A stretch of DNA of 60,313 nucleotides, taken from IMG/VR virus record IMGVR_UViG_3300028571_001115, positions 1-60,313 of that record; one strand, 5' to 3'. The position numbers and the translations under genes were made by a program. The DNA comes from a virus. Shown here piece by piece: positions 36,259 to 60,244 of this stretch (the stretch's first letter is position 1; every line of letters begins with the position of its first letter). The notes under the pieces were generated by a model. The model was not told the origin of the DNA and did not search any database. It saw nothing but the letters and a program-made list of their open reading frames with translations.

Positions 36259-37512
36259 TTATCGGCAAGCGTACACGCCCGTCACATAGGCCAGAGTGGC
36301 ATGTGCAATCTGCCGCTCGTCGGTCAGCCGGATCTGCTCTAGGTCGATCTGGGCCAGGGCCTCAACGGCATCCAGGTAGGCGCGGGCGTCACGCTTGCCT
36401 GCCTTGTAGGCTGCCTCGGTTGCGGTCAGCACCTGGGCAGCGATCGCCCGGCGCTTCCCCAGCAGGGCAACCTGACCGGTCCCAAGCTGGATGGTTGTCC
36501 ATGCAATAGATGCTTGACCGGCAACCTCGTCCTCGCTCGCGCTGGAGCGGTATGTCGCAGCAGACGCTGCCGCCCGGCGGCTCTCCAGATCGGCCTGCGG
36601 CTCGGCACCCCATGGCAGTGGCACCCGAGCCGTCACCTTGCCATAAGCCTCCTCAGCCTCGTACGTTCTGGCATATTGTACGCTATGCTTGACGCCCACC
36701 TGAAGTGCAACCTCCGGCAGCCTGGGCCTGGAGCGCTGCGCCAGCTGGATCGCTGCCGTATCTTTAGCCAGCCGTGCCTGCCTCAGCTGCGGTGCATGGG
36801 CCAAGACGGCAGCCCTGCACTCCTCCAGGCTGGCACAGGCAGGGGGCACTGGCTGGCTGATGACCTTACGGGCAGCGCTTACAGCTCCACCCCACAAAGC
36901 CAAGCGGCGATGCTCGGCCAAGGCCGCCCGCTGCTGCGTGTCGCCCTCTGCCAGCAGCCAGCGAGACAGCCGGTCCCGCACATCCAGCAGGTCGACCTCC
37001 GGCACGTCCTTGGCCTTCACCCGCTTGCTGACATCTGCCATGACCCGCTTCAGCTGGCGCTGAGTCTCTCCTGTAACCTTGAGCCGGTCATTTGTTGACT
37101 GAGCCTCGATCGCAATGGCGCGGGTTTCACGTGAAATTGATCCGCAGACATCATCCAGCGCAGCTGATCGTTGTGCAATCGTTGCGTCGGCAACCCTAAG
37201 TTCGTCGATCAGCAACTGGTCCTTGATGATGGGCTGCGTCAACCTGACCTCGGCACTCCATGGCCCTGGTGCACGGTCACGGATGGAAGGATCAGGCACC
37301 CCATTGATGGTGTCGCGTGTCCAGGCGGGTCCGATCTCGCCGGTCGCCTCCACGGTTGGCATCCAGTTCGCGATCACCCGGCGGCGTTGCGCGACCGCCT
37401 GAGCGAGGTCAGCCTTGGCTGCCATCACCCGGGGGTGATCGGAAACCTCGGGAGCCCAGCAGGGGGTTACTGTAATGCTATAACATATCATAGCGAGCAG
37501 CAGGCGTTTCAT
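36259..37512 (-). CDS. TolC-family outer membrane channel protein
   Basis: A 417-aa protein with a signal peptide (about residues 1-19). TolC architecture follows: two similar halves, each a long pair of helices with Ala/Gln/Arg periodicity (ADLAQAVAQRRRVIANWMPT; AAYKAGKRDARAYLDAVEAL) and strands between them. TolC trimers span the outer membrane and periplasm and dock on HlyD-type adaptors. The neighbour upstream is exactly such an adaptor fusion, 7 bp away. TolC genes are very rare in phages. A GTGAGGGA ribosome-binding site precedes the start. Confidence 0.75.
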   Translation of the reverse strand: MKRLLLAMICYSITVTPCWAPEVSDHPRVMAAKADLAQAVAQRRRVIANWMPTVEATGEIGPAWTRDTINGVPDPSIRDRAPGPWSAEVRLTQPIIKDQLLIDELRVADATIAQRSAALDDVCGSISRETRAIAIEAQSTNDRLKVTGETQRQLKRVMADVSKRVKAKDVPEVDLLDVRDRLSRWLLAEGDTQQRAALAEHRRLALWGGAVSAARKVISQPVPPACASLEECRAAVLAHAPQLRQARLAKDTAAIQLAQRSRPRLPEVALQVGVKHSVQYARTYEAEEAYGKVTARVPLPWGAEPQADLESRRAAASAATYRSSASEDEVAGQASIAWTTIQLGTGQVALLGKRRAIAAQVLTATEAAYKAGKRDARAYLDAVEALAQIDLEQIRLTDERQIAHATLAYVTGVYACR

Positions 37513-37519
37513 GGATCCC

Positions 37520-39154
37520 TCACCTTATTGCCCGGCGAACCGAGCTTGTTACGATTGACGACAGCCATCCCGCCGCTGTCTGCGGTTGGCCGATGATCGT
37601 CACCTCGACCTCAGTGCCGAGCGCGATGGGCTCGGATGGCGTCAGCACGACGCGGAACGCCCCGTCGTCATACCGGTCAGATGATACCGTGCGGACCTGG
37701 GCGCGTATGGCGCGCCCGAAACGCACGAAGCTGGTCTTGATGCGCACCTCGGCCTGGGTGTCAGCCGCAACTGATGCACGGTCGACAGGATCCAGCTTGG
37801 CCTCGATGATGGGGTCGCTATCTGGCACCACGGTCAGCAGTGCGTCGCCGATGGCAACCGGTGTCCCAGGTGGGCCTGCCTCGATCTGCTGCACGCGCCC
37901 ATTCCTCGGGGCCGCAATCACGGTCCCGGTCAGTACGCGGTCAACCTCTGCTAGCCGCTCCTGCAGCTTCAGGATAGTGGATCTGCGGGCGTAGCTGCGC
38001 TCCAGCCATTCGCGCTCCTCGGTCGACTGGTAGATCAAGGCTTCTGTTAGGTCTGATTGAGGGCGCAGGCCGCGCTTTACGAGGTCTTCGGTCGCGGTGA
38101 CGCGTGAAGACACAAGTTGCTGCGCCTTGGTGCGTGCTGATGTCGAGGCCTGGAGTGTAGTCTCCTCCAGTCGCGCCTGGGCGATGATACTTTCCCGCTG
38201 TTTTGTATAATCAGCCCCGTCCAGTGTCAGCAGAGTATCGCCGCGCGAGACGTGGTCCCCCTCCCGCACCAGGAGCGTGGACACGCGCGACGTTACGATC
38301 GACTTGATGGCGGCAGCGTGGCCGTCAGGGGACACCACGCCGGTCATGACGGTCGTCCCCGGCACCGGCACCGCCAGGGGCAGCACAACCAGCGCGCCGG
38401 TCGTGACGCAGCAGGCGGCGAGGCGGTTGCCATAGCGCGTGACGTCATCGGACGCAGGCACCGGCCCGGCCTTGAGCGTGTTGGCCGCCAGGATGAGCCG
38501 AAAGCTGTGTATTGCCGCCTTCGCAAGCTGAAGGTTGCGGAAAACAGCGAAAACCCGGCTACAGATGCTGGCCACCAGGAATGCAGCCGACAACAGCACA
38601 CCTGGCGACAGGATGCCCCAGATCGCCAGAAGCGCGGACAGCCCCATCGCCAGGACGGTAGCCCCGGCCACGAGCCCCTGAGAGGCGATTGACTGGCCGA
38701 GCTGTTGCGCGGCCCAGATGGCAACAACCAGCAGGGCGATGAGCAGCAGGAACGACCAGTGCGCGGCAACGAGGCCAGCGATCAATATCGGCGTCATGCA
38801 CAGACAAAGGAGGTCCCACGGCACGTTGGCCCGCACCGCAGTGTCGATGACGCGCAGAGCCTCCTGCTTGCTGTTGGGTGCTACGATGCTGCGCGCGACG
38901 GCCCAGCAGGCAGCGAGGTACTGGGTGGCACTATGGGCCAGGGCGACATTGACGCCCATCAGCAGGCACGCCAGGACGCCCAGCACGGCCACGGTCTCGA
39001 TGCTGCGGCTGGGGATGGCACGGTCGGCCAGGATCAGCGCGTAGACACTCGGCACGGCTGAGAGCACCAAAGCGCAGGCGGCAGCGAGTGCTGCAAACCA
39101 GAGTCGGGTCTTGAGATAATGATCCACCACGACGACAACCCACCCCAGTTTCAT
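37520..39154 (-). CDS. Fusion of a PrtD-like membrane domain and an HlyD-type adaptor, no ATPase
   Basis: A 544-aa protein. Residues 1-235 resemble the transmembrane domain of PrtD-type type I secretion ABC transporters: several hydrophobic helices and the string LADRAIPSRSIETVAVLGVL, close to the conserved DRVLPSRS region. The usual ATPase does not follow. Instead, residues about 245-540 are an HlyD/PrtE adaptor: one membrane anchor, a lipoyl-like strand (VREGDHVSRGDTLLTLDGAD), a coiled hairpin and a barrel (GTVIAAPRNGRVQQIEAG). No Walker A or signature motif is present. It likely pairs with the TolC-like protein; how it is energised is unknown. Confidence 0.7.
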   Translation of the reverse strand: MKLGWVVVVVDHYLKTRLWFAALAAACALVLSAVPSVYALILADRAIPSRSIETVAVLGVLACLLMGVNVALAHSATQYLAACWAVARSIVAPNSKQEALRVIDTAVRANVPWDLLCLCMTPILIAGLVAAHWSFLLLIALLVVAIWAAQQLGQSIASQGLVAGATVLAMGLSALLAIWGILSPGVLLSAAFLVASICSRVFAVFRNLQLAKAAIHSFRLILAANTLKAGPVPASDDVTRYGNRLAACCVTTGALVVLPLAVPVPGTTVMTGVVSPDGHAAAIKSIVTSRVSTLLVREGDHVSRGDTLLTLDGADYTKQRESIIAQARLEETTLQASTSARTKAQQLVSSRVTATEDLVKRGLRPQSDLTEALIYQSTEEREWLERSYARRSTILKLQERLAEVDRVLTGTVIAAPRNGRVQQIEAGPPGTPVAIGDALLTVVPDSDPIIEAKLDPVDRASVAADTQAEVRIKTSFVRFGRAIRAQVRTVSSDRYDDGAFRVVLTPSEPIALGTEVEVTIIGQPQTAAGWLSSIVTSSVRRAIR

Positions 39155-40130: not shown

Positions 40131-40171
40131 AACATAGATCATCAATGCAGGGATGTCAACTGTCAGTTGAC
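40131..40171 (-). promoter_or_regulatory. Promoter with perfect operator
   Basis: TTGACA (40154-40159), 17 nt, TATGTT (40131-40136) on the minus strand. Operator GTCAACTGTCAGTTGAC (40155-40171) overlaps the -35. Transcription expected near 40124, start codon at 40103. Confidence 0.75.
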
Positions 40172-40180
40172 TTAAAGATC

Positions 40181-40211
40181 AAAAAAGTGGGCGGTTGCTT
40201 TCCACCGCCCG
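40181..40211 (-). terminator. Rho-independent terminator after the porin gene
   Basis: On the minus strand GGGCGGT, an 8-nt loop, ACCGCCC, then ACTTTTTT. It closes the porin transcript just before the promoter of 39855-40103. Confidence 0.85.
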
Positions 40212-40289: not shown

Positions 40290-41435
40290 TTAGAACTTCA
40301 CGATCGCACCGACCTTCATGACGTCAACCTTTTCGTCGGCATCCATGTGCTGCCAACCGGCATAGATGTCGAGCGCTGCCGCATCAAACGACTGCACGGC
40401 ACCGAGGCCGTAGAGCATCAATTCAGCTCCGCTACCCGAGTAAAGGCCATACTCGCCCATGAGGGTGGTTTTGCCATAGCCCGTGAAATTGCGCTCGATG
40501 CCGCCCGTGACGTGATAGCCGTCCAACGTCGCTTTCCCGACGGTGGTGTCATCAAACAGCGCAGCGAGGCTCACGTTGCCCTTGCGGCCATACGCGCCGG
40601 TCACGAACAGGCCGGTGGTGGTTTCCATAACCGAAACCGAGCCGCCGAAGAAACGTGGAGCGGCGCGCCGAGTTGGGTTGACGCAGTTCGTGGCAGGAGG
40701 GACTGGGGTGCAGGCCCCGAAGTAGTCGAGGTTAGCCTCTTCACGGTAACCGACCCCTGCGGCAATCTTGAAGGTGAGTAGTTCGCCAGCGTAGCGTGCC
40801 GAGATGTCCTTCTGATCTCCACCATCAGCCCAGGCAGCCGAGAGCGTGACACCCATCAGCGCAGGCGTGTCATAGCGCACGACGTCGCGGCGTGAGCCGT
40901 CAAAACCAAGGTCGAACTCGATCGGCAGGCCCGACAGGCTGAACGACTTGGAGACGCTGGCCGTGTTGGCGACGCTGATCTCGACGATACCGTCGGTTGC
41001 CTGCGAGGTGCGGCCCAGGCTCAGGCGACCGGCGGTCGCGCTGTCAAGGTACACGAAGCCGTGGCGGATACTCGTCTGCGCGTCGGCCAGGGTATCGATG
41101 CCGACTTCCAGGACGTAGCCAGCTTTGAGGTCTGGGCTGATCCGGCCCTCGCCGATGAAGCGCACGCGGCTCTGCTCCAGGCCGTTACCAGCGACGCCCT
41201 TCTCGGTGCCGTCAGGCGTGTCGATAATGAGCAGTTGCTGGTTCACTTGACCCGAGATGGTCAGGGTCACTTTGCGATTACCCTTCTTGGCGGCAGCGGC
41301 TTCAAGTTCGGCGATACGTTCTTCAATGTCGGCGCAGCAGGCTTTGCCGCCAAGGTCGGCGGCGAAGGCTGCAATGGATGATACGAACAGGCAACTCAGC
41401 GCCAGGAGCGCTGTGGCCAGGATCTTTGATTTCAT
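40290..41435 (-). CDS. Alphaproteobacterial porin
   Basis: A 381-aa protein from the ATG at 41435 with AGGAGT ribosome-binding site. Signal peptide (SKILATALLALSCLFVSSIA, cleavage after AFA). Then the short coiled coil CCADIEERIAELEAAAAKKG and KVTLTISGQVNQQLLI, the start of the 16-strand barrel typical of Hyphomicrobiales porins, with final Phe (VGAIVKF) as required for outer-membrane insertion. Full length, no truncation. A phage porin may replace or mask host receptors, as lc of coliphage PA-2 does. A terminator follows. Confidence 0.85.
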   Translation of the reverse strand: MKSKILATALLALSCLFVSSIAAFAADLGGKACCADIEERIAELEAAAAKKGNRKVTLTISGQVNQQLLIIDTPDGTEKGVAGNGLEQSRVRFIGEGRISPDLKAGYVLEVGIDTLADAQTSIRHGFVYLDSATAGRLSLGRTSQATDGIVEISVANTASVSKSFSLSGLPIEFDLGFDGSRRDVVRYDTPALMGVTLSAAWADGGDQKDISARYAGELLTFKIAAGVGYREEANLDYFGACTPVPPATNCVNPTRRAAPRFFGGSVSVMETTTGLFVTGAYGRKGNVSLAALFDDTTVGKATLDGYHVTGGIERNFTGYGKTTLMGEYGLYSGSGAELMLYGLGAVQSFDAAALDIYAGWQHMDADEKVDVMKVGAIVKF

Positions 41436-41472
41436 GGTTGGAGGACTCCTGTTGCGGTCAGCACGATGATGT

Positions 41473-41513
41473 CGCGTAGACCCGTTCGATGTTGGCGTCA
41501 ACTCTCGGCTGAC
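41473..41513 (-). promoter_or_regulatory. Operator with promoter-like element before the porin
   Basis: TTGACG (41496-41501) and, 17 nt away, a weak -10 TACGCG (41473-41478) on the minus strand. Operator GTCAACTCTCGGCTGAC (41497-41513) overlaps the -35. The porin thus appears under the phage repressor. Confidence 0.5.
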
Positions 41514-41572
41514 TAGAAAGTTTGGAGCGAGGCAGGATTGCCTCACCCCATTCGTGATTTCGTGTCGGGGCG

Positions 41573-42028
41573 TTAGTTACTTGGGGGTACTGGTGGGGGC
41601 TTTGAAAGGAACGACGGCATCCCCGTTGCTTTCGGCACCGGCTGGGGCACCGCGTCGGGTGCCGGAGGCGGTGCGGATGATGTGGTGGTGACGGAGGGTG
41701 AGGCAGTAATTGCAGATACAGGGACGGAAGATCCTGGCCCCTTGATCACCTGGGCAAGGAAGGCCTGCAAGCTGGCGGCGCGACCTTCCAGCTGGGAGGC
41801 GATAGCGCGGTTCTGCTCGGCTACTGTCAGGCATTCGGCGGCCCTTGCGTTGAGCCACGGTACGGACCCCCCGGGTCTGAATAGGTTGGTGTAGCCCCAC
41901 CCAATGGCAGGAAGGGCAGTGCCGCCGACAATGCCCCGCTGGACGAGGAGGGCGGTGTCGACGTTGTTGAAGGTTTTGGTGAAGAAGGTGAAGAACTCTT
42001 GAGCGGAGGTAAGCTCGGCTGCGGCCAT
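41573..42028 (-). CDS. Hypothetical protein with Ser/Pro-rich tail
   Basis: A 151-aa protein: helical start (LTSAQEFFTFFTKTFNNVDT), a possibly membrane-associated Gly segment (LVQRGIVGGTALPAIGWGYT), a helix, and a Pro/Ser/Thr/Val low-complexity end. It overlaps the upstream membrane protein by about 200 bp in another frame. Function unknown; it lies in the envelope-related cluster. Confidence 0.5.
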   Translation of the reverse strand: MAAAELTSAQEFFTFFTKTFNNVDTALLVQRGIVGGTALPAIGWGYTNLFRPGGSVPWLNARAAECLTVAEQNRAIASQLEGRAASLQAFLAQVIKGPGSSVPVSAITASPSVTTTSSAPPPAPDAVPQPVPKATGMPSFLSKPPPVPPSN

Positions 42029-42273
42029 GGGACGGTGGCTCCTGCATTGATGATCATCTGCTCGTAGGCGGTGCAGTCCAGTTCGGCCCTACTGCGCCGT
42101 TTGACTGCGTCGTCACGCGCCTTGGCGGCGGCCTCGTATCCCTCCCTTGCTGCGGCAGTGTCGGCCTTTGGCTGGAACAGCGGGCCGGTGATGTAGCGCA
42201 CGAAGATCAGCGCAAAAACCACGATCAGGGCGCACTCGATCAGCTTGGTCCAGACCTCGGCGGTAATGTTCAT
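41827..42273 (-). CDS. Membrane protein with i-spanin-like topology
   Basis: A 148-aa protein. One N-terminal membrane helix (IECALIVVFALIFVRYITG), then a charged helical region (REGYEAAAKARDDAVKRRSR) and a Ser/Pro-rich tail that may be a shadow of the overlapping gene. An N-anchored periplasmic helix is the layout of Rz-type i-spanins, but no o-spanin lipoprotein is embedded. AGGATC ribosome-binding site. The call is from topology only. Confidence 0.45.
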   Translation of the reverse strand: MNITAEVWTKLIECALIVVFALIFVRYITGPLFQPKADTAAAREGYEAAAKARDDAVKRRSRAELDCTAYEQMIINAGATVPWPQPSLPPLKSSSPSSPKPSTTSTPPSSSSGALSAALPFLPLGGATPTYSDPGGPYRGSTQGPPNA

Positions 42274-42301
42274 GCGATCCTCGCGAATATCTGCTAGACG
42301 T

Positions 42302-42315
42302 GATGATGGTATTCG
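42302..42315 (-). promoter_or_regulatory. CGAATACCATCATC box between divergent genes
   Basis: The box matches those at 9139, 14761 and 29505, but without TTGACG at the same spacing. It lies between the minus gene starting at 42273 and the plus gene starting at 42329. Confidence 0.35.
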
Positions 42316-42328
42316 ATGGAGGTGGCTA

Positions 42329-43675
42329 GTGTCAGTTGAGCAACACAAAGCTGAAGATGACGATCGCAATAAGCAGTCAACTGGACGCAATCTGCTGGGG
42401 CGGGCCGGACAAGGTGCGCTATTGGCGCTGAGCCGGGCACAAAACCTCGCACAGGAGCTGGCCCAGTCTGTGGCGGTGATCGCTCAGCCGGTGCAAGCTG
42501 CAGTGCGTGCGGTTCAGATGGTGCCAACCAGCGTCCTAAAAGCGGCAGCGCGTCATCTGCGGGTGCTGCAGCAGGCGGCATCAGCAACGGAGGCTGGGGC
42601 GCGGGTGGCGGGTGTTGCGATGAACGCGGCCATGGCAACCTCGCCGCTGATGGAAGCATCGATCCTGGCCGCACTCGACCTCAACAGCGAGGGTGCCGTC
42701 AAGGAGACTGCCAAGAAGCTGACAAACGAACAGGCTGACTACGCCGCTAAGGCCATCGCGTTCGCCCAGGAGACAGCAACCCAGACCCACGACACCGGCA
42801 AGGCGTTATCCAGCCTGACGGTCGGATACGACCTCGCTCAGCAAGCAGACAATTTCGGCCGCACTGATGCGCATGCTGAACAAATGGCGCCACTCATCCT
42901 CTATGCCAAGATTGCGCCACCGGTTATTATCGGAGTTGACCTCGGCGACACGCGCGAGAACACCGGCATCCACATCATGGTCACGGTCCACGACGAGTAT
43001 GTTGGTGACGTCACCAAAATGCTCAGCCTATCGGCACAGAACTACGAGCTGGTCAAGGGGCTCGACATCCCGTTCTCGTACACCGACAGCTTCGGCCACA
43101 CCGTGTCGACCACGATCCGCGTGCCGATCCTCGACGTTAACGAGGTGCCCGAGACGCCGGTCATCATCTCGACGTTCGATGGGCAGCAGCTGGTGATCAC
43201 CGCGACCGCAGCAGACCCCGACGGCGAGATCCTGCCCTCGCAGACATGGACCTACACTGTGCAGCAGCTGGCGGCAGGAGCACCGAGCTTCACGGCGACG
43301 TTCACTGATGCTGGTGGGTTGATGTCGAGCGCGCTGATCGACCCGCCAGAGCTGGCAAAACAAGCGGCATTGGATTCGCCGGTTGCCCCGACCATGCTGG
43401 GGTATTCGCTGGCAAGTTTGCCGGAAAACCAGGGCGGTGTGTTGATGGTCACGGCCTACGACGCAGTGGATGGGGTGATCGTACGGGGCTATGCGCTCTC
43501 GGCCCAAGACCACGAGACCACCCCCCAAATTTTGCAGCACGTCGAGATCATGAACTCCGCCGGGCTCAGCACCAGCAGTGACGTGTCGATCACCATCACC
43601 GACGTGTCGATCACCATCACCGACGTCTTCGACATCAACTGGAACGAGGTAGTCGATTCGCCGCCGATTATTTAG
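42329..43675 (+). CDS. Putative surface protein with cadherin-like repeats
   Basis: A 448-aa protein on the opposite strand from its neighbours, from a GTG preceded by ATGGAGGTGG. Residues 1-190 are an Ala/Gln-rich helical domain. Two cadherin/VCBS-like repeats follow: VTVHDEYVGDVTKMLSLSAQ with TTIRVPILDVNEVPETPVI, then VTAYDAVDGVIVRGYALSAQ. It ends in a duplicated VSITITD and an acidic hydrophobic tail. No N-terminal signal peptide is seen, as for type I secretion substrates. It may be the cargo of the TolC/HlyD pair; that is inference from proximity. Confidence 0.5.
   Translation: MSVEQHKAEDDDRNKQSTGRNLLGRAGQGALLALSRAQNLAQELAQSVAVIAQPVQAAVRAVQMVPTSVLKAAARHLRVLQQAASATEAGARVAGVAMNAAMATSPLMEASILAALDLNSEGAVKETAKKLTNEQADYAAKAIAFAQETATQTHDTGKALSSLTVGYDLAQQADNFGRTDAHAEQMAPLILYAKIAPPVIIGVDLGDTRENTGIHIMVTVHDEYVGDVTKMLSLSAQNYELVKGLDIPFSYTDSFGHTVSTTIRVPILDVNEVPETPVIISTFDGQQLVITATAADPDGEILPSQTWTYTVQQLAAGAPSFTATFTDAGGLMSSALIDPPELAKQAALDSPVAPTMLGYSLASLPENQGGVLMVTAYDAVDGVIVRGYALSAQDHETTPQILQHVEIMNSAGLSTSSDVSITITDVSITITDVFDINWNEVVDSPPII
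43580..43621. repeat. 21-bp tandem duplication
   Basis: GACGTGTCGATCACCATCAC plus one C, present twice in tandem, encoding the repeated VSITITD near the C-terminus of the cadherin-like protein. Confidence 0.9.
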
Positions 43676-44880: not shown

Positions 44881-45897
44881 TCAATTTTTCAGGTCATTGC
44901 TAAGCTCGTAAACGCTGTCACTAGTCAGATTATAATCCCTCGCAATTTGCTTGGCCCTCTCATATCCAATCTGGACAGCACCAACCACAGCACCAATTTT
45001 GTCTCCGTTCTCAAAGCCAGTGACTGCAGCGCCCACGCGGAGGCTGTGGCCGCTGAACCTGTCTGCCTTGAGCCGTGCCTCGGCAGCAGTGTCGCCCTGG
45101 CGAGCGAAATACTCGGCGATGCGCTTCTTGATGATTTTCGAAACCGACTCGTCGTCCAATCGCTCGCGCCCGACGGTGCCCCACCGCGAGACGTTGCGCA
45201 GGATCGCCTGCCCTGGGCGGACCTGGGCGAATGCCAGCCACTGTTCGACAGCGTCGAGCAGTGGCTCATTCTGAGCCCTTGACATCAACAGCGCCTCTTT
45301 TTTTGTCGTGTACCGCACAACCATGCGCTGTGGATCAATCGTAAGAAATAATCCACCACCCTCCTCTGAGCAATCTAGATCCAGCGCAACCAAATCAGAG
45401 CGACGAAGCGCAAACGAGTACCCAAGCGCCAGAAGGCAGGCGTCGCGCAATTCAAGGGGTGTGCCACCCATGCCCCGCAGGACATCCAGGATCAGAGATG
45501 CCCGCATCGGGGCCGTTAAGGTTGATTTCATGATTTGAGGTTCGGCCCGCCTAGCATCCCTCAAGATCGCCACAATAGCGGGTGCTGTCGTGTCGAAGTG
45601 TTGCCCCTTTTCGGCATGCACAGACTTGATGGCGGCGACGGCGTTGCGCAACGTGCTCAGGGCGTGGCCTTTGCCGTCAAGCTTCATCCGCTTGCCGCCT
45701 CTATCGCCCTCGTTTGCACGCAGGGCGATCCAGTTAGCGACGGCCTCTGCGGTGGCTGGAAAGGGCGACACGCCGGTCGCGGCGCAATGGTCCAGCCACA
45801 GCTTCCACTGGCTGGCGTATGCCCGCCTTGTGTGAGGCATTAAGCCATGAGAAAAATTGCCACCCTGGTCGGCTTCGTCTTTGATAAAACGCTTCAT
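44881..45897 (-). CDS. Tyrosine recombinase (first integrase-type gene)
   Basis: A 338-aa protein. N-terminal SAM-like core-binding domain (residues 20-120: RRAYASQWKLWLDHCAATG). The catalytic domain has Arg in SFALRRSDLVALD (about 165), HSLRVG (His284, Arg287) and late Tyr candidates at 312 and 322. The usual G-H/R-W box is degenerate (KIGAVVGAVQIGYERAK). The start at 45897 has no ribosome-binding site; an ATG 19 codons in is an alternative. It could resolve concatemers or be a second mobile integrase, as another recombinase lies at 58739. Confidence 0.7.
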   Translation of the reverse strand: MKRFIKDEADQGGNFSHGLMPHTRRAYASQWKLWLDHCAATGVSPFPATAEAVANWIALRANEGDRGGKRMKLDGKGHALSTLRNAVAAIKSVHAEKGQHFDTTAPAIVAILRDARRAEPQIMKSTLTAPMRASLILDVLRGMGGTPLELRDACLLALGYSFALRRSDLVALDLDCSEEGGGLFLTIDPQRMVVRYTTKKEALLMSRAQNEPLLDAVEQWLAFAQVRPGQAILRNVSRWGTVGRERLDDESVSKIIKKRIAEYFARQGDTAAEARLKADRFSGHSLRVGAAVTGFENGDKIGAVVGAVQIGYERAKQIARDYNLTSDSVYELSNDLKN

Positions 45898-58582: not shown

Positions 58583-58931
58583 GACCGTCAGTGCCCTGGT
58601 CTGGCGCGAGGGCACACGACCGCGTAGTCTGCGCTGGCTCCGTGAGGACATGGCGCGCCGTGGCTTTGCCAGAAAGGTCGGCGGACGCTACGTCACGACA
58701 CTGGAGATGGTCGAGCGATACAAGGATGATTTAATCGGATGCGTGAAAAATTTGCAATCAGAGCCACCCTTAAACCTGCCAGTCGCATCAAAAACGGCGT
58801 CACGTATTGGAGCGCCAGAGGCAACGTCCCCGTCAAAAAAGAGGACGGCACGATTGCCCATCAGCGAGTCGACATTGGCCTTGGAAAAGCTGCAAACGCT
58901 GCGGAAAGAAAAGCGGAGTGTGCGCGCCTAA
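58554..58931 (+). CDS. Excisionase-like HTH protein
   Basis: A 125-aa protein from a GTG with GAGGAGG upstream. Residues 12-60 look like a small winged HTH (LVWREGTRPRSLRWLREDMA, VGGRYVTTLEMVERYKDDLI), as in excisionases or MerR-type adaptors. The tail is Ser/Pro-rich and overlaps the integrase start by 193 bp. Position directly before the integrase supports a directionality role. Confidence 0.5.
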   Translation: MTNALTQVDETVSALVWREGTRPRSLRWLREDMARRGFARKVGGRYVTTLEMVERYKDDLIGCVKNLQSEPPLNLPVASKTASRIGAPEATSPSKKRTARLPISESTLALEKLQTLRKEKRSVRA

Positions 58932-60244
58932 ATAGTGAGTACGAGGAGCGGGCGAAGGCGAGTGGCAAAAGAATGACTTTCGCCAGGGCGTGCATGAATT
59001 ATTGGGATGCTGGGCACGAGCCGTGCTTTATGTCAGATCGAATAATCGCAGCCATCGGCGACATGAATTGCGCCGATATTGACGACACGGTCATGTTGCG
59101 GGTGGCCCAGAAACTATTCCGCAGAGAAGCGTCCCCTGGCTATGTCAACCGGCACCTTTATACGCCGGTCAACGCTGTCCTGAAGATGGCCTCTAAGTCG
59201 AAGGTCTGCCCACCACCAGATCTCACGCGCCCAAAGGGCCACAAGTCGTCGCCCCAGAAGGCGATCCCAGATGACGCTTGGTACTCCAAGGTCGAACCAT
59301 TCCTAACGCCGCACCTGCGCGCCCTGGTGGCTTTCATGACCCTGCACGGTCGCCGTCTTGGGGATGCGCTCAACGCCGCCCGGGGGGACTACCTTCGAGA
59401 CCAGGGCGTGCTGATGATCGGCAAGGACAAGATGGGCAACGCCCTGCAGATCCGCCTCACCGTACACGTCATCAAGTGCATTGAGGCGATGCCGGATTTT
59501 GGCCAGCACAAGCACCTGTTTCGGTATGGTCCAGTAGCTCCGTCGAACGTCCGCCGGGACCTGCAGAGGGCGTGCCTTAAGGCTGGCGTACCTTATTTCT
59601 CCCCGCACTCCTTGGGCCGCCACGCCTTCGCGACCCGCATGCTGCGCGCCGGGTTCTCGCTCCAGTTCGTGAAGGACGCGGGTGGGTGGAAAACGATCGA
59701 AATGGTGTCGAACCGGTACGGCCACCTTGCCCACAGCGAGGTCAGCGCCGCCGTCGAGTCTGTGTCGGTCGATTTTGCCAACGGCAACGAGAGCGCCATC
59801 GCGGCAGCCTACAAGCTGGCGGACGAAGCCTTGTCTGTACCCACACTGCCGAAGGTCGACCTTGATCATCCGCTTGCTCGCCAGGAGGCGCTGATGCGCC
59901 TGCGCGGCACGAGCCCTGCCTGGGTCTATTTCTTCTACTGCTCGGGCGCGATCAAGATCGGCGTCTCGACTGACGTCCAAAAGAGGCTGAAGAACATCAA
60001 TGGAGGCAACAGCAACACCATCTACCTCGTCGGTCTGCTGCCGGGGTCGTTCCAGCTTGAAGGCGAACTGAAAGCTCGGTTTGACAAGTTCGCTACCAGT
60101 GGAGAGTGGTTCAGGGCTGAACCAGAGCTGCTTCGCTTCATCGACGTGAATGCTGACGGAAAACCCCTGATCGACGGTGGAAAATTGGTGGAAAAAGATT
60201 TTCGCCTCGCCCTGCCAAAGTTGGATGATGGTTTACCTCAATAA
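58739..60244 (+). CDS. int: Tyrosine integrase fused to a T5orf172 (GIY-YIG-like) domain
   Basis: A 501-aa protein. Residues 80-160 are the core-binding domain. Residues 175-335 are the catalytic domain: LHGRRLGDALN (Arg205/206), KDKMGN, HSLGRHAF (His290, Arg294), GGW (315-317) and Tyr327 in NRYGHL. Residues about 392-470 match T5orf172: WVYFFYCSGAIKIGVSTDVQ, RLKNINGGN and SGEWFRAEPE, with Arg416 and Glu456 as expected nuclease-type residues. Phage integrases normally end after the catalytic Tyr. The last gene before the likely att site. Confidence 0.85.
   Translation: MREKFAIRATLKPASRIKNGVTYWSARGNVPVKKEDGTIAHQRVDIGLGKAANAAERKAECARLNSEYEERAKASGKRMTFARACMNYWDAGHEPCFMSDRIIAAIGDMNCADIDDTVMLRVAQKLFRREASPGYVNRHLYTPVNAVLKMASKSKVCPPPDLTRPKGHKSSPQKAIPDDAWYSKVEPFLTPHLRALVAFMTLHGRRLGDALNAARGDYLRDQGVLMIGKDKMGNALQIRLTVHVIKCIEAMPDFGQHKHLFRYGPVAPSNVRRDLQRACLKAGVPYFSPHSLGRHAFATRMLRAGFSLQFVKDAGGWKTIEMVSNRYGHLAHSEVSAAVESVSVDFANGNESAIAAAYKLADEALSVPTLPKVDLDHPLARQEALMRLRGTSPAWVYFFYCSGAIKIGVSTDVQKRLKNINGGNSNTIYLVGLLPGSFQLEGELKARFDKFATSGEWFRAEPELLRFIDVNADGKPLIDGGKLVEKDFRLALPKLDDGLPQ

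What the first reader, a model, noticed from the sequence alone, without database searches (positions are those of the whole stretch)
36259..39154. Phage-encoded TolC plus an ATPase-less PrtD/HlyD fusion
Two adjacent genes encode an outer-membrane TolC-type channel and a 544-aa protein joining a PrtD-like ABC transmembrane domain to a full HlyD-type adaptor. The ATP-binding domain expected between them is absent, and no separate ATPase is encoded nearby. I know of no described phage system of this kind. It might form a channel across the envelope for release, entry, superinfection exclusion or cargo export, perhaps borrowing a host ATPase.
Basis: partly seen in the sequence, partly recalled or inferred. 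Interest (0 to 1): 0.85.

Follow-up and report, generated by a model that had tools for sequence, protein, structure and literature searches.

The report
Phage secretion-channel genes lacking their ATPase
A temperate phage carries a stripped-down bacterial protein-export machine, in which the inner-membrane part has lost its ATP-burning engine and the loops that would grip it and is fused to the periplasmic tube, next to its own outer-membrane channel; it looks like a reshaped type I secretion system used for something other than ordinary ATP-driven export.

Summary
On the minus strand of a temperate-phage contig, ORF 39154-37520 (544 aa) joins a PrtD-type ABC transmembrane domain (TMD) to a type I secretion (T1SS) HlyD/PrtE adaptor, and ORF 37512-36259 (417 aa) is a T1SS-type TolC. 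No ABC ATPase domain was found in the contig or in 6.7 kb more of the same phage. New here: the TMD has also lost the cytoplasmic loops that couple to an ATPase. Landmark spacings are 68 and 71 residues, against 93 and 129 in bacterial PrtD. Borrowing a host ATPase is therefore unlikely. The TMD core has no acidic residues, so an SbmA-type proton-driven transporter is also unlikely. No relative with this architecture was found in viral contigs, phages, plasmids or nearly 1,200 sampled genomes. However, other phages do carry T1SS genes with the ATPase: L217/L218 have PrtD plus PrtE between terminase and portal, and L216 has PrtD. Phage-borne T1SS is therefore not unique; the reduced, fused, ATPase-free form is. 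Best reading: a T1SS-derived, passive, multi-pass-anchored adaptor-TolC bridge, probably modifying the host envelope. The role is unproven, and a decaying T1SS remnant remains a real rival.

The parts
37520..39154 (-). Fusion CDS, 544 aa: PrtD-type TMD + T1SS HlyD/PrtE adaptor, no nucleotide-binding domain
   Evidence: GC by codon position 0.67/0.50/0.77, coding-like
38486..39154 (-). TMD part (aa 1-223): about six membrane helices, PrtD landmarks DR..S.S..T (TM1-2), PW (TM3), SPG (TM5-6) and F-R in place of W-R/K (TM6); both cytoplasmic loops shortened
38423..38485 (-). Junction (aa 224-244) where the ~250-aa ATPase domain would be in PrtD; leads straight into the HlyD N-terminal membrane helix (about aa 245-262)
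37523..38449 (-). HlyD/PrtE adaptor part (aa 236-544): TM anchor, lipoyl halves, hairpin, barrel, T1SS-type C-terminal segment
37928..38218 (-). Coiled-coil hairpin (aa 313-409), two helices of about 48 and 44 aa; the only well-predicted part (pLDDT about 81-91 for most blocks)
36259..37512 (-). TolC-type outer-membrane channel, 417 aa, Sec-type signal peptide
   Evidence: OEP PF02321 E=4.7e-29, two stretches; TIGR01844 E=7.9e-18
40131..40159 (-). Promoter-like site (TTGACA-17-TATGTT) that could start the unit containing the fusion and TolC; consensus match only
40189..40210 (-). Terminator-like hairpin with T-run after the porin gene, separating it from the fusion/TolC unit; count of such sites not above shuffles

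Best explanation
The pair derives from a bacterial prtDEF-type type I secretion operon (ABC exporter, adaptor, TolC) carried by a temperate phage. The ATPase domain between the PrtD membrane domain and the PrtE adaptor was lost in frame, which fused the two. The cytoplasmic loops that dock on the ATPase were trimmed as well. Membrane topology fits: the TMD ends in the cytoplasm, where an adaptor begins. Stoichiometry fits too: HlyB and HlyD are present 1:1 in the known complex (three dimers with six HlyD). The protein is therefore inferred to form a six-chain, inner-membrane-anchored adaptor ring that docks on the phage's own TolC, making a passive trans-envelope bridge rather than an ATP-driven exporter. 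The most likely use is remodelling of the host envelope in early infection or lysogeny, for example superinfection exclusion or interference with host TolC/T1SS/efflux assemblies, alongside a phage-encoded porin 1 kb away. Shown: domain identities, operon order, loss of NBD and loops, phage setting. Inferred: assembly, passivity, role.
For: Domain homology. D-E-F gene order, 7-nt gap. NBD absent in six frames, with positive controls. Loop loss: DR-to-PW 68 against 93, PW-to-PG 71 against 129 residues. No Asp/Glu at residues 115-235, so no SbmA-like glutamate ladder, which PMC13316013 describes for NBD-less ABC-derived transporters. 1:1 stoichiometry from PMC11026475. Intact open frames with coding-like composition. 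T1SS genes with ATPase on other phages show a plausible parent state. Position beside replication and DNA-metabolism genes rather than late genes, and the porin neighbour, suggest an early or lysogenic envelope role. TolC is a known phage receptor (PMC8277102).
Against: No experiment, and no relative with the same architecture to show conservation. Structure predictions were of low confidence, and the Foldseek hits to HlyB/PrtD were not significant (best E 0.04) on a model whose alignment rows were PrtDs. Codon adaptation of both genes is weaker than in most core phage genes (0.06-0.08 against mostly 0.09-0.32), compatible with recent acquisition or weak constraint. Nothing directly shows expression, assembly or exclusion.
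Confidence: 0.45

Rival explanations
1. A decaying T1SS cargo cassette: the phage picked up prtDEF, and the remaining frames are open only because loss is recent and happened in frame. No current function.
For: Singleton architecture; very long branch in the adaptor tree (4.47); weaker codon adaptation; other phages carry versions with the ATPase.
Against: At least four separate in-frame losses (NBD, two TMD loops, adaptor barrel/hairpin segments) without one stop or frameshift in about 960 codons; TolC kept with its signal peptide; losses cluster in parts that an ATPase-free protein would not need.
Confidence: 0.25
2. A working exporter of phage-encoded cargo, energised otherwise: by the proton motive force, by folding of cargo outside, or by mixed complexes with host PrtD dimers. 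A candidate cargo is the cadherin/Ig-like ORF 42245-43675.
For: A 476-aa coding ORF with weak Ig-like repeats and no obvious Sec signal lies 3 kb away; phage L217 has an unassigned 473-aa ORF beside its T1SS genes; 3:6 HlyB:HlyD rings could in principle mix active and inactive dimers (inference from PMC11026475).
Against: No acidic residues in the TMD core; no RTX repeat array found in the window; the two candidate cargos are not similar; a porin unit lies between the candidate and the operon; the FxT segment before TM3 is gone.
Confidence: 0.15
3. Lysis or virion-release accessory: an inner-to-outer membrane bridge acting like a spanin or gated leak.
For: It would span both membranes; a small TM/coil ORF at 41827-42390 looks spanin-like by eye.
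Against: Gene order puts the pair with replication/DNA-metabolism genes, not after the late genes; no endolysin or holin was identified beside it.
Confidence: 0.07
4. Assembly artefact: a chimera or collapsed assembly deleted the ATPase segment.
For: Metagenome-type contig; the second contig of this phage ends at window 28333 and does not cover the locus.
Against: Several independent in-frame losses inside the TMD and adaptor as well as the NBD are not what a single misjoin gives; phage genes flank it on both sides.
Confidence: 0.05

Closest known systems
PrtDEF/AprDEF-type type I secretion systems (TIGR01842/TIGR01843/TIGR01844)
   Same: Same three component types in the same order; PrtD landmarks; T1SS-type adaptor C-terminus; T1SS-type TolC
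   Different: No ATPase domain, coupling loops shortened by about 25 and 58 residues, PrtD and PrtE fused, hairpin about half length
Phage-borne T1SS genes with ATPase (L217/L218 IMGVR 3300031946_000351/3300031833_000325; L216 3300028044_001128; PHROGs phrog_2392, phrog_4949)
   Same: PrtD/PrtE-type genes carried by phages
   Different: Those PrtDs keep the ATPase domain; in L217 PrtE is a separate gene; no TolC was found in those short records
Short-hairpin PrtE adaptors of Alphaproteobacteria (L179, L183, L184, L180)
   Same: Best matches to the adaptor half (E down to 4.8e-13), with shortened hairpins
   Different: Separate genes behind PrtD with ATPase; hairpin spacing 84, not 106; tree does not join them to the phage protein
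SbmA/BacA (SLiPT) transporters
   Same: ABC-type TMD that lost both the ATPase and the coupling helices (PMC13316013)
   Different: SLiPTs use a glutamate ladder and proton gradient; here there is no Asp/Glu at residues 115-235, and an adaptor is fused
HlyB-HlyD inner-membrane complex (PDB 7SGR, 8DCK)
   Same: Exporter:adaptor ratio 1:1 (three dimers with six HlyD) is what a single-chain fusion would impose
   Different: HlyB carries CLD and NBD; separate chains

Membership tests
Type I secretion system (functional) | ABC exporter with nucleotide-binding domain (Walker A, LSGG signature) | tested here: not met
   PF00005 absent in six frames at E<=10, controls ring; no signature motif
Type I secretion system (functional) | PrtD-type TMD with cytoplasmic loops for NBD coupling | tested here: not met
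   TMD homology present but landmark spacings 68/71 against medians 93/129
Type I secretion system (functional) | HlyD/PrtE-type adaptor with T1SS-type C-terminal segment | tested here: met
   TIGR01843 E=1.9e-23, below its curated cut-off; C-terminus aligned
Type I secretion system (functional) | TolC-type outer-membrane channel | tested here: met
   PF02321 E=4.7e-29; TIGR01844 E=7.9e-18, below its curated cut-off
Type I secretion system (functional) | Cognate substrate (often RTX, C-terminal signal) | tested here: inconclusive
   No RTX array in the window; cadherin/Ig-like ORF 42245-43675 is only a candidate
SbmA/BacA (SLiPT) | ABC-type TMD without NBD or coupling helices | tested here: met
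   definition from PMC13316013
SbmA/BacA (SLiPT) | Glutamate ladder in the TMD | tested here: not met
   Acidic residues in 1-235 only at 11, 44, 53, 98, 104, 114
SbmA/BacA (SLiPT) | Sequence match to the SbmA/BacA family | tested here: not met
   No SbmA/BacA family among Pfam hits at E<=1
Temperate phage gene (moron) | Lies inside a phage genome, not host flank | tested here: met
   Phage DNA-metabolism genes on both sides; integrase, repressor, terminase, portal in the same contig
Known anti-phage defence system | Match to a PADLOC model | tested here: not met

The most novel reading that the evidence does not exclude
The phage has turned a type I secretion system into a stable, ATPase-free, single-chain inner-membrane ring plus its own TolC, a passive trans-envelope conduit or plug made for a viral purpose such as superinfection exclusion or capture of host TolC assemblies. 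It would be an adaptor-bearing parallel to the loss of NBD and coupling helices that gave rise to SbmA.
Probability: 0.4. Interest if true: 0.78.

Novelty: new variant of a known kind. Interest (0 to 1): 0.58.

Why it matters
T1SS exporters are thought to need ATP hydrolysis by an NBD coupled to the TMD. A natural protein that discards both the NBD and the coupling loops yet keeps the TMD, fused to its adaptor and paired with its own TolC, would show that the TMD-adaptor-TolC assembly has a use without the engine. It would also give a ready-made single-chain inner-membrane complex for structural work. It adds to the evidence that phages carry envelope-spanning machine parts (T1SS genes with ATPase in L217) and raises the question of what they use them for.

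Tried and rejected
Pattern searches for close relatives in viral and genome contigs and tblastn in phages found nothing of this architecture; plasmids gave adaptor-only matches. The record overlapping this phage (L002/G001) matches window 1-28333 at 99.97% but stops before the locus; a 50%-terminase relative (L003) gave no match to the fusion either. The terminase scan of genomes did not identify a host (best hits 51% or less). Open frames of 972 and 1039 aa in L181/L182 looked like natural ABC-HlyD fusions but are stop-to-stop frames around ordinary separate HlyD genes. The TolC found no close bacterial relative in 297 genomes, so its exact donor is unknown. Structure prediction was uninformative except for the hairpin. 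L215 is probably a bacterial exopolysaccharide/RTX locus, not a clear phage. SbmA-like proton drive was rejected for lack of membrane carboxylates. The short-hairpin resemblance to L179-type PrtE is not proof of shared descent.

Full report
What is there. The window is a linear virus record of 60,313 bases with a terminase, portal, head protein, integrase, repressor, primase and helicase. A second record overlaps window 1-28333 at 99.97% identity and adds 6.7 kb on the left. On the minus strand lie ORF 39154-37520 (544 aa) and, 7 nt on, ORF 37512-36259 (417 aa). Both are open throughout and have a coding-like composition, though with weaker codon adaptation than most core phage genes. Phage DNA-metabolism genes follow downstream: a Dam-type methylase and a DUF1064/resolvase-like gene. 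Replication genes lie upstream.

The TolC. The 417-aa protein matches the outer-membrane efflux family at E=4.7e-29 with two stretches. Its only NCBIfam match is the T1SS TolC subfamily, E=7.9e-18, below the curated cut-off. No close bacterial relative was found in 297 sampled genomes.

The fusion. Residues 236-544 are a T1SS HlyD/PrtE adaptor. They align to plasmid and chromosomal PrtE proteins to the last residues. The coiled-coil hairpin is shortened: 106 residues between landmarks, against about 205 in most PrtE and 84 in a short-hairpin set. Single-sequence AlphaFold predicts it confidently as two helices, 313-360 and 366-409, and little else. Residues 1-223 are a PrtD transmembrane domain. 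A 34-sequence PrtD profile matches 16-77 and 158-223 in the right order, above shuffled controls overall (17.3 bits for the whole ORF, against 3.3 for the best shuffle, although that shuffle's better single domain reached 9.5), and hhalign aligns 230 columns at E=3.4e-5. Hydropathy shows about six membrane segments before the adaptor's own.

What is missing. No ABC ATPase domain exists anywhere in the window in six frames or in the extra 6.7 kb. The TMD is also shortened where the cytoplasmic loops should be: from the DR motif after TM1 to the PW of TM3 there are 68 residues instead of 93, and from PW to the PG between TM5 and TM6 71 instead of 129 (medians over the 15 of 34 PrtDs in which all motifs could be located). 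By knowledge of type IV ABC transporters, these are the stretches that carry the coupling elements to the ATPase. The review PMC8277102 describes an extended TM2 and loop leading into TM3 in AaPrtD, and its FxT motif on TM3 falls in the missing part. Loss of both the ATPase and its docking loops makes recruitment of a host ATPase unlikely. It parallels SbmA-like transporters, proposed to derive from ABC transporters that lost NBDs and coupling helices (PMC13316013). SbmA uses a glutamate ladder, whereas the phage TMD has no Asp or Glu between residues 115 and 235, so proton coupling of that kind is not supported.

Is it unique? Scans of IMG/VR, phage records, plasmids and sampled genomes gave no protein with this architecture. 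These searches have limits: pattern pre-filters, samples of about 400 genomes per group with some overlap, and only three candidates scored per genome in the large runs. With a bacterial PrtD as confirming sequence, IMG/VR did yield phage T1SS genes. L217/L218 carry terminase, an unassigned 473-aa ORF, a cytochrome b-like gene, PrtD with ATPase, PrtE, portal and head protease in that order. L216 has PrtD with ATPase next to Erf and YqaJ recombination genes. So T1SS is a phage passenger elsewhere, and the window holds a reduced, fused derivative of that kind, though the tree does not make the L217 adaptor its sister. My literature searches found no description of a phage-encoded T1SS, within an open-access library only.

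How it might work. The known HlyB-HlyD complex has three HlyB dimers and six HlyD (PMC11026475), a 1:1 ratio that a fusion would fix, and the topology at the junction is compatible. I infer an adaptor ring anchored by up to 36 TMD helices, docking on the phage TolC. Without an engine it is most simply a passive bridge, plug or capture device. The phage also encodes a porin at 40290-41546, with a terminator-like hairpin and a promoter-like site between it and the fusion unit (consensus matches only). The location among replication-side genes points to early or lysogenic expression. Envelope remodelling such as superinfection exclusion is therefore my preferred role, at moderate confidence. Decay of a T1SS cassette is the main rival; non-ATP export, lysis help and assembly artefact are less likely.

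Limits. The host is unknown, there is no relative for a selection test, the fold is not confirmed by prediction, and no functional data exist.

Noticed in passing
L217:1-11346 and L218 (IMGVR 3300031946_000351, 3300031833_000325): A phage with a type I secretion cassette (cytochrome b-like gene, PrtD with ATPase, PrtE) and an unassigned 473-aa ORF inserted between terminase and portal: a phage-borne T1SS in a structural-gene region.
   Followed up: partly
L216:589-4352 (IMGVR 3300028044_001128): PrtD with ATPase downstream of Erf and YqaJ phage recombination genes, at the contig end.
   Followed up: partly
window 40290-41546 (-): Phage-encoded porin (Porin_4, E=1.1e-16) with a likely start near 41435 and a Sec-type signal; a possible receptor-replacement or exclusion gene.
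   Followed up: partly
window 42245-43675 (+): Coding ORF on the opposite strand from its neighbours, with weak Ig/cadherin-like repeats and no obvious Sec signal; possible secreted or surface protein.
   Followed up: partly
window 41573-42390 (-): Overlapping ORFs; one (41827-42390) has a TM segment and coil that resemble a spanin by eye, with no family hit.
   Followed up: no
window 44881-45897 (-): A second tyrosine-integrase-like gene in addition to the integrase at 58739-60244.
   Followed up: no
L179, L183, L184, L180: A subfamily of T1SS PrtE adaptors with hairpins less than half the usual length (84 against about 205 residues between landmarks), behind PrtD genes with ATPase.
   Followed up: partly
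window 58739-60244 (+): Integrase matches end near residue 370; the C-terminal ~100 aa match other phrogs, two of them named endonuclease (phrog_17889, phrog_681), suggesting an integrase-nuclease fusion.
   Followed up: no
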